From Pseudomonas nicosulfuronedens (GTDB taxonomy: Bacteria > Pseudomonadota > Gammaproteobacteria > Pseudomonadales > Pseudomonadaceae): a stretch of 64,000 bases of DNA. Each line of letters begins with the position of its first letter. Within the stretch, counting starts at the first letter, position 1. Made by a program: the position numbers and the translations under genes. The DNA is taken from contig NZ_SWDV01000014.1 in the NCBI RefSeq assembly GCF_005877905.1, positions 124,001 to 188,000 of the forward strand, written 5' to 3'. Shown in pieces: positions 12,321 through 14,747 of the stretch. The notes below the pieces were generated by a model, which was not told where the DNA came from, ran no database searches, and worked only from the letters and a program-made list of their open reading frames with translations.

Positions 12321-12515
12321 TCAGGAATCGGCGTTGCTGCCAGCGGCGGCCTTGGCGGTCTGCTCGGCGGACTGGGCCTGCTGCTGGGCAATCACGGCTT
12401 CGTTGGCCTTGACCATCTTGTCGGTCATCAGGCGCGATTCTTCGGCGAAGCTCAGCTGAGTGAAGGACAGCGAGCAGAGGGACAGCAGGGCAGCAACATA
12501 AAGAGAACGGGACAT
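12321..12515 (-). CDS. Small secreted/periplasmic protein
   Basis: A 64-residue protein starting at ATG 12515 (MSRSLYVAALLSLCSLSFTQ). Residues 1-25 form a signal peptide ending SFAEE; the mature part (about 40 residues) is charged and then Q/A-rich (NEAVIAQQQAQSAEQTAKAAAG), probably helical. A GGATCACC stretch precedes the start on the minus strand, and a dedicated terminator follows at 12238-12266, so it is a single-gene unit. Family not recognised; function unknown. Confidence 0.7.
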   Translation of the reverse strand: MSRSLYVAALLSLCSLSFTQLSFAEESRLMTDKMVKANEAVIAQQQAQSAEQTAKAAAGSNADS

Positions 12516-13693: not shown

Positions 13694-13759
13694 CGCGCCG
13701 CAAAACTGAATCGCAGTATAGGGTCGTTTTTTGCCGATTGTTACCACGTATAGTGCCGG

Positions 13760-13905
13760 ACAAGTCGCTGCAGCAACGTTGGGCATACCAGGCTCATCGT
13801 ACGGCCGCCGATACACCAATCGACGGCCCTCTCCCCCGCGCATACCTGGCTGCAGCGACTGACTCTTTCTCCAGGGGCGGCCATCTTCGGATGACCGCCC
13901 TTTTT
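13760..13905 (+). ncRNA. Candidate structured small RNA with terminator
   Basis: A TATAGT -10 box lies at 13749-13754. The predicted RNA has a 12-bp closing helix (13763-13774 with 13849-13860), an internal hairpin (13803-13812 with 13819-13828, loop ACACCA, one C-A mismatch) and a terminator hairpin (13875-13884 with 13891-13900, loop CTTCGG) followed by five T. No ORF with a ribosome binding site fits. The -35 element is weak. I cannot name the family. Confidence 0.6.
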
Positions 13906-13942
13906 CGTTGCTGGCCACAGCAACGGAGCCGAGCCGGATGGT

Positions 13943-14032
13943 GTAGGAGCGAGCTTGCTCGCGAACAGGTCAAACGGCGGCGCCAAAGTTGAGCGGTTCG
14001 CGAGCAAGGGCTGGGCGCCCCCTCGGTCCTAC
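13943..14032. repeat. REP-like element with a variant right arm
   Basis: The left arm is the common GTAGGAGCGAGCTTGCTCGC. In the right arm the usual CTCGCTCCTAC is replaced by GGCTGGGCGCCCCCTCGGTCCTAC. The mirror-image variant arm occurs at 19377. Confidence 0.85.
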
Positions 14033-14042
14033 AGAAAGCCGA

Positions 14043-14747
14043 TCAGCGCGGCAGCGGGTAGAGGCGCTCGTCGAACTGATCCAGGCGCACGAACTCCAGC
14101 GGCGTATCACTCTCCAGGTTCTGTAGACGGTCCTGGTACTGGCGCAGAAAGTCCTGGCGCGCCTCGTTGCTGATGTAGGGCACATGCCAGGCCACGAAGG
14201 GCGGCAGCACGCTCATGCCGGTGTAGGCCAGGGTGCCGCGCAGGATCGGTCGCAGCATGTCCTCCAGCGGGCCGTGGATAGCGCCGTCACCGAACATGTG
14301 GTCGCGCCCGCCGAGGGTCACGCTGACCAGAGCCTTCTTGCCGGCCAGGCCGCCCTGGTCGTAGAAGCGCTTGCCGCCGTAGCAGATGCCCGAGACCAGC
14401 ACGCGGTCGAACCAGCCCTTGAGAATGGCTGGCGCGGAGAACCAGTAGATCGGGAAGTTGAAGACCACCAGGTCCGCCCAGAGCAGTTTGTCCAGCTCGG
14501 CCTGGATGTCGGCGGCGATGGTCTTGGCCTTGGCGCCTTCGCGCTGTTCCAGGGCATAGACCAGGTACTCGGGGTTGGCGCGGGCGCCGAAGTCGGCGGC
14601 GCTGGCCACCGGGTTCCAGTTCATCGCGTAGAGGTCGGAGACCTGCACTTCGTGGCCCTGGCCGCGCAGGGTCTCTTCGGCGAGCTGGTAGAGCGCAGTG
14701 CTGAAGGATTGCGGTTCGTTGTGGGCGTGGACGATCAGTACGTTCAT
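14043..14747 (-). CDS. NAD(P)H:quinone oxidoreductase, flavodoxin-2 fold
   Basis: A 234-residue FMN/FAD-dependent reductase of the NQO1/KefF/MdaB superfamily. It begins MNVLIVHAHNEPQSFS (flavin phosphate loop), with FNFPIYWFSAPAILKGWFDRV in the middle and SVTLGGRDHMFG in the nicotinamide/flavin region. Start ATG 14747; the frame further upstream crosses a repeat. From memory PA4975, a quinone oxidoreductase, precedes aruH in PAO1. It is the last gene of the minus-strand aru cluster but is separated from the ALDH by a repeat, so co-transcription is uncertain. Confidence 0.85.
   Translation of the reverse strand: MNVLIVHAHNEPQSFSTALYQLAEETLRGQGHEVQVSDLYAMNWNPVASAADFGARANPEYLVYALEQREGAKAKTIAADIQAELDKLLWADLVVFNFPIYWFSAPAILKGWFDRVLVSGICYGGKRFYDQGGLAGKKALVSVTLGGRDHMFGDGAIHGPLEDMLRPILRGTLAYTGMSVLPPFVAWHVPYISNEARQDFLRQYQDRLQNLESDTPLEFVRLDQFDERLYPLPR

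What the first reader, a model, noticed from the sequence alone, without database searches (positions are those of the whole stretch)
13760..13905. Unassigned, well-folded candidate small RNA divergent from a LysR gene
A TATAGT box, a 12-bp perfect closing helix (13763-13774 / 13849-13860), an internal hairpin with 9 of 10 pairs, and a clean terminator with a UUCG-type loop occur in order within about 145 nt with no credible ORF. Such nested architecture is unlikely by chance. I do not recognise it as RsmY/Z, CrcZ, PrrF, 6S or 4.5S RNA.
Basis: partly seen in the sequence, partly recalled or inferred. Interest (0 to 1): 0.75.

Follow-up and report, generated by a model that had tools for sequence, protein, structure and literature searches.

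The report
Sr006 small RNA upstream of LysR
The stretch encodes a known Pseudomonas small regulatory RNA, Sr006, whose conserved exposed C-rich stretch matches the start of the messenger for a lipid A-trimming enzyme (PagL), its reported target; the RNA family is already catalogued, but its catalogued shape looks wrong and the matching site gives a testable mechanism.

Summary
The RNA is not unassigned: it is Rfam RF02889, Sr006 (112.7 bits, cut-off 100), reported in reviews as an activator of pagL in P. aeruginosa (passages). It lies beside the same divergent LysR gene wherever found: 24 of 25 genus genomes, 0 of 373 other family genomes. The conserved unpaired linker CCCCGCG-C-AUA complements UAU-U-CGCGGGG at the predicted 5' end of pagL mRNA in 21 of 25 genomes. 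In the P. aeruginosa-like genome G011 both sides differ yet match over 8 nt, and a second Sr006-like element, in an HlyD-gene leader, matches over 12 nt. Likely mechanism: activation by pairing at the pagL 5' end. How pairing activates is unproven; simple release of the start codon is not supported by folding, and two genomes with Sr006 show no pairing.

The parts
13749..13754 (+). -10 box TATAGT of the small RNA (no good -35 seen)
   Evidence: sequence; TATAGT in 21 of 24 aligned loci, TATACT in L020 and L023, TAAACT in L024; not found by the consensus scan
13705..13717 (.). dyad ACTG-N5-CAGT overlapping the LysR gene's predicted -10; possible LysR-type site, about 45-57 nt upstream of the RNA start (inference)
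   Evidence: CTGNNTCGCAG in 23 of 24 aligned loci, not in L020
13763..13905 (+). Sr006 small RNA, about 143-146 nt with terminator; Rfam model covers 13763-13882 only
   Evidence: RF02889 112.7 bits; own model R1 166.3 bits (this sequence was in its training set)
13763..13774 (+). 5' arm of closing helix
   Evidence: 100% of cells paired in 24 sequences, 4 of 12 pairs with double changes
13849..13860 (+). 3' arm of closing helix
13776..13800 (+). hairpin 1, loop AUACCAG
   Evidence: 91.7% of cells paired, 2 of 9 pairs with double changes
13803..13828 (+). hairpin 2, loop ACACCA
   Evidence: 88.3% of cells paired, 7 of 10 pairs with double changes
13829..13848 (+). conserved unpaired C-rich linker CUCUCCCCCGCGCAUACCUG; proposed pagL-pairing site at 13834-13844
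   Evidence: mean unpaired probability 0.91 here, 0.77-0.98 over 24 sequences; duplex with pagL 5'UTR -20.0 kcal/mol
13873..13905 (+). intrinsic terminator, C(UUCG)G loop, five T
   Evidence: 88.1% of cells paired, 9 of 13 pairs with double changes; poorly formed in L020, L023, L024
12697..13632 (-). divergent LysR-family regulator, 311 aa
   Evidence: PF00126 and PF03466; homologue in 24 of 24 Sr006 loci

Best explanation
The stretch is the orthologue of the Pseudomonas small RNA Sr006. A 12-bp helix closes a multiloop that holds two hairpins and exposes a C-rich linker. That linker pairs with the first nucleotides of pagL mRNA (UAU-U-CGCGGGG) and raises PagL expression, probably by protecting the mRNA 5' end and/or loosening a fold that sequesters the start codon. 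Shown here: family membership, conserved fold, synteny, complementarity with pagL that is kept in 21 genomes and differs on both sides in one. From the literature: pagL activation through its 5'UTR. Inferred: the precise pairing site, the pagL transcription start, how pairing activates, and control of the RNA by the divergent LysR protein.
For: RF02889 above cut-off, one copy in its genome. Covariation for the whole fold (slid controls 24-60% paired against 92.1%). pagL (PF09411) in 25 of 25 genus genomes. Element TATTCGCGGGGATTTTTCATT with 0-1 mismatch in 21 of 25 genus genomes, each just upstream of pagL, and in 0 of 373 others; the same 21 have the CCCCCGCGC linker. G017, without Sr006, lacks the element. 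In G011 both sides differ and still match: UGCGGGGG with CCCCCGCA, 8 nt, reached by 8 of 1000 shuffles. Of 7 TATNCGCGGGG sites in the window's genome only pagL's lies in an evident 5'UTR. Reviews: Sr006 acts on the pagL 5'UTR, positively (passages).
Against: Per-genome significance of the 7-nt match is modest (22-91 of 1000 shuffles; by duplex energy 0-107 of 1000) and the genomes are related. In G004 and G013, which have Sr006, no significant pairing with pagL was found. The four genomes without the element include the most diverged Sr006 loci, so the agreement may partly reflect phylogeny. Blocking the paired bases leaves the start codon sequestered (P 0.81-0.99 in the 21 genomes). RNAcofold, which cannot draw this pseudoknotted contact, gave gains of -1.2 (G000, elsewhere) and -3.2 kcal/mol (G011: the pagL G-run with a different C-run, just 3' of the closing helix). 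A review says that deleting Sr006 had no effect on PagL. Two reviews call the action Hfq-independent, a third tabulates Sr006 as Hfq-dependent. No transcript was seen here for this species.
Confidence: 0.7

Rival explanations
1. Sr006 is real but pagL is a minor or side target; the linker and the hairpin loops mainly serve another mRNA or a protein.
For: G004 and G013 keep Sr006 without the pagL pairing; the hairpin 2 loop (CACC invariant in 24) is conserved without a known partner; deletion reported without effect on PagL.
Against: Agreement of linker and pagL element in 21 genomes and a matching difference in G011; pagL the only evident UTR hit among 7 sites in the own genome for that one pattern.
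Confidence: 0.2
2. The pagL 5' element is conserved for its own sake, as the outer strand of a fold that hides the pagL start codon, and its match to Sr006 is coincidental.
For: Start codon paired with the UTR at P 0.96 or more in 21 of 25 genomes, the same 21 that carry the element; 0.14 or less in the other four.
Against: The 12-nt match of the G011 pagL element with the Sr006-like leader (0 of 1000 shuffles) and the reported chimeras of Sr006 with pagL.
Confidence: 0.15
3. The region is a cis-acting leader or a chance terminator and not a separate RNA.
For: A Sr006-like element is the leader of an HlyD gene in G011.
Against: Here the next gene is convergent; terminator well formed in 21 of 24; Sr006 was annotated from the P. 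aeruginosa transcriptome (review passage).
Confidence: 0.03

Closest known systems
Sr006 (Rfam RF02889), P. aeruginosa
   Same: Scores over the curated cut-off; divergent LysR gene; unpaired linker complementary to the pagL 5'UTR
   Different: The supported fold differs from Rfam's (12-bp closing helix and hairpin 1 are absent from the model); this copy has a clear intrinsic terminator, inside which the Rfam model ends; the model's 124 positions equal the PAO1 annotation quoted in reviews
Activators by anti-antisense pairing such as DsrA or RprA on rpoS (recalled)
   Same: Positive action through pairing with a 5'UTR whose start region is predicted sequestered
   Different: Pairing at the very 5' end; release of the start codon not reproduced by folding; Hfq role disputed between reviews
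mRNA-protecting activators such as RydC on cfa or SgrS on yigL (recalled)
   Same: Would explain the reported rise in pagL mRNA
   Different: No decay data here

Membership tests
Rfam RF02889 Sr006 | covariance-model score at or above the gathering cut-off (100 bits) | tested here: met
   112.7 bits over the whole model, 1-124
Rfam RF02889 Sr006 | Rfam's consensus secondary structure | tested here: not met
   mapped on the 24-row alignment: 78.4% of cells paired; double changes only in hairpin 2, which the two structures share. This speaks against Rfam's structure for the family, not against homology
Sr006 of P. aeruginosa | same locus: beside the divergent LysR gene | tested here: met
   24 of 24 loci, including the P. 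aeruginosa-like G011; PAO1 itself was not held
Sr006 of P. aeruginosa | pairs with the pagL 5'UTR | tested here: inconclusive
   complementarity by computation only; absent in G004 and G013
Sr006 of P. aeruginosa | raises PagL | not testable with these tools
   reported in reviews; Hfq independence in two, Hfq dependence in a third's table

The most novel reading that the evidence does not exclude
Sr006 arose from, or shares descent with, the 5' leader of an HlyD-type efflux gene. In three genomes outside the genus the slot beside the LysR gene holds that HlyD gene; in the genus it holds Sr006; in the P. aeruginosa-like genome G011 a Sr006-like element is the leader of the HlyD gene at another place and carries a 12-nt perfect match to the pagL 5' end. 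An efflux mRNA leader and a free small RNA would then both regulate the lipid A deacylase, linking efflux to outer-membrane remodelling.
Probability: 0.3. Interest if true: 0.7.

Novelty: already known. Interest (0 to 1): 0.38.

Why it matters
The finding itself resolves to a catalogued RNA. What is added: a covariation-supported fold for Sr006 that differs from the catalogued one, a precise candidate pairing site with pagL, and a related mRNA leader. Together they make the open question of how this RNA activates pagL directly testable.

Tried and rejected
Rejected: unassigned RNA; small protein (lengths 119, 120, 123, 124 nt among relatives). No member found outside the genus: 0 of 373 by the Rfam model and by R1, both with the stricter filters used above 40 genomes. 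R1 without filters on ten loci around LysR homologues (nine from other genera of the family, one from G017) gave nothing better than E 0.068, a match lacking most of the structure (its only strong match was the G011 leader, given as the eleventh source). Simple start-codon release by the linker was tested and not supported. Further weak R1 matches in the genus (E 0.054-0.77) were not pursued. An alignment with loci in mixed orientation was discarded and redone. Searches for PA0159 with sRNA and for RF02889 found 0 papers. The primary paper, Zhang et al. 2017, is not held, so I do not know whether its authors already named this pairing site.

Full report
What is there. The fold is far better than 200 dinucleotide shuffles (z -5.73). 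The simple consensus scan found no plus-strand promoter or terminator by its rules, so the promoter's -35 is weak or absent.

What it is. A search of the 64-kb window against Rfam gives one match over its cut-off, exactly here: RF02889, Sr006, 112.7 bits at 13763-13882; no other family matches the region at E up to 1. The genome has one copy. Of 25 genus genomes 24 have it, 15 over the cut-off; of 398 family genomes the same 24, so 0 of 373 outside the genus, under stricter filters. A pattern scan of named genomes returned 11 contigs, all Pseudomonas, among them P. nitroreducens, P. pseudonitroreducens, P. citronellolis, P. delhiensis and P. panipatensis. A homologue of the divergent LysR gene (67-100% identical) is present in 24 of 24 loci (family).

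Structure. On the 24-row alignment the fold with closing helix, two hairpins and terminator has 92.1% of cells paired, 22 of 44 pairs with double changes and a covariation score of 0.259 against a shuffle mean of 0.151; slid versions pair 24-60%. The closing helix is paired in every sequence, with double changes in 4 of 12 pairs. RNAalifold on the same alignment predicts it without being told. Rfam's consensus structure, mapped onto the same alignment through the cmscan alignment (2 of its 30 pairs fall on gaps in our sequence and were dropped), pairs 78.4%, with double changes in 7 of 28 pairs, all in hairpin 2, which both structures share. The Rfam model ends at 13882, inside the terminator stem; its 124 positions equal the span 182,570-182,693 of PAO1 quoted in reviews. 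Wurtzel et al. 2012 state that sRNA 3' ends were estimated from whole-transcriptome data (passage). The terminator is poorly formed in L020, L023 and L024.

Literature. I saw passages of three reviews (PMC8395346, PMC12101431, PMC9308961). They report that Sr006 was found in chimeras with pagL mRNA, interacts with the pagL 5'UTR, and raises pagL mRNA and protein when overexpressed, while its deletion had no effect. Two call this Hfq-independent; the third lists Sr006 under 'Whether Hfq dependent' as 'Yes'. The primary paper (Zhang et al. 2017, reference seen) is not held.

Target site. pagL (PF09411) is in 25 of 25 genus genomes. Just after its TATAAT box lies GCTATTCGCGGGGATTTTTCATT in most. 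With 0-1 mismatch TATTCGCGGGGATTTTTCATT occurs in 21 of 25 genus genomes (20 exact, G010 with one), each time immediately upstream of pagL, and in 0 of 373 others; matches with 2-3 mismatches elsewhere look like terminator halves, which I did not test. It complements the unpaired Sr006 linker: UAU-U-CGCGGGG with CCCCGCG-C-AUA, -16.9 to -20.0 kcal/mol over the 21. The linker is unpaired with mean probability 0.77-0.98 in 24 sequences. The same 21 genomes have the CCCCCGCGC linker. G017 has neither Sr006 nor the element. G004 and G013 have Sr006 with another linker and no significant match. The 7-nt matches are individually modest (22-91 of 1000 shuffles by length, 0-107 by energy) and the genomes are related. 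In the window's genome 7 sites read TATNCGCGGGG: pagL, Sr006 itself read backwards, and five that show no sign of being a 5'UTR. This scan used one short pattern and is not a full target search.

How it may work. pagL mRNA is predicted to pair its start codon with its own UTR in the 21 element-bearing genomes (P 0.96 or more; 0.14 or less in the other four), with the G-run of the element as outer strand in most folds; linker pairing minus the cost of opening the mRNA is -8.5 to -13.8 kcal/mol, the cost of opening the small RNA not counted. But with those bases blocked the start codon stays paired (P 0.81-0.99). So either the outer strand only kinetically guards the start region, or pairing at the 5' end mainly protects the mRNA from decay, which fits the reported rise in mRNA. 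I consider 5'-end protection slightly more likely. RNAcofold, which cannot draw the linker contact, puts the G011 pagL G-run on a different C-run of Sr006, just 3' of the closing helix (-3.2 kcal/mol), and finds only four unrelated pairs for the window's genome (-1.2). The pagL transcription start is inferred from the TATAAT box, not mapped.

A second copy. In G011 a Sr006-like element (43.3 bits, E 5e-5 per genome) is the leader of an HlyD-family gene. Its stretch at the place of the linker matches the G011 pagL element over 12 nt (0 of 1000 shuffles, duplex -35.8 kcal/mol), though on its own the leader's minimum-energy fold pairs part of that stretch. Of 17 genomes tested the HlyD gene is found in G011 and in three genomes of other genera (G025, G034, G037), and in none of the 12 other genus genomes tested (E up to 1e-60); in those three the HlyD gene starts divergently beside the LysR homologue, in the slot that Sr006 fills in the genus. 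Their leaders do not match R1. Shared descent of Sr006 and the G011 leader is therefore likely; which came first is open.

Control of the RNA. The -10 box without a good -35, the divergent LysR gene in every locus and a dyad ACTG-N5-CAGT at 13705-13717 (CTGNNTCGCAG in 23 of 24 loci) suggest LysR control. This is inference.

Noticed in passing
L093:1507-1657 (G011): Sr006-like element as the 5' leader of an HlyD-family gene, with a 12-nt perfect complement to the G011 pagL 5' element.
   Followed up: partly
L025-L049, first 50 nt upstream of the pagL ATG: pagL start codon predicted to be sequestered by the 5'UTR stretch UUUUUCAUU in 21 of 25 genus genomes.
   Followed up: partly
window 13705-13717: Dyad ACTG-N5-CAGT overlapping the LysR gene's predicted -10, kept in 23 of 24 loci; possible LysR site.
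   Followed up: partly
window 13785-13791, 13813-13818, 13842-13846: Three AYACC motifs in unpaired positions; the hairpin 2 loop is the best conserved (CACC invariant in 24), the linker copy nearly so, the hairpin 1 copy variable; partner unknown.
   Followed up: no
window 13942-14033: Inverted repeat around TGTAGGAGCGAGCTTGCTCGCGAAC, a REP-like element common in pseudomonads (name recalled).
   Followed up: no
window 12324-12515 (-): 64-aa reading frame with a signal-peptide-like start (by eye) and no Pfam match, downstream of the LysR gene.
   Followed up: no
L020:10-1497 (G011): In the P. aeruginosa-like genome the gene convergent to Sr006 is an RND efflux transporter (PF00873), unlike the flavodoxin-fold reductase at 14043-14747 in the window.
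   Followed up: partly
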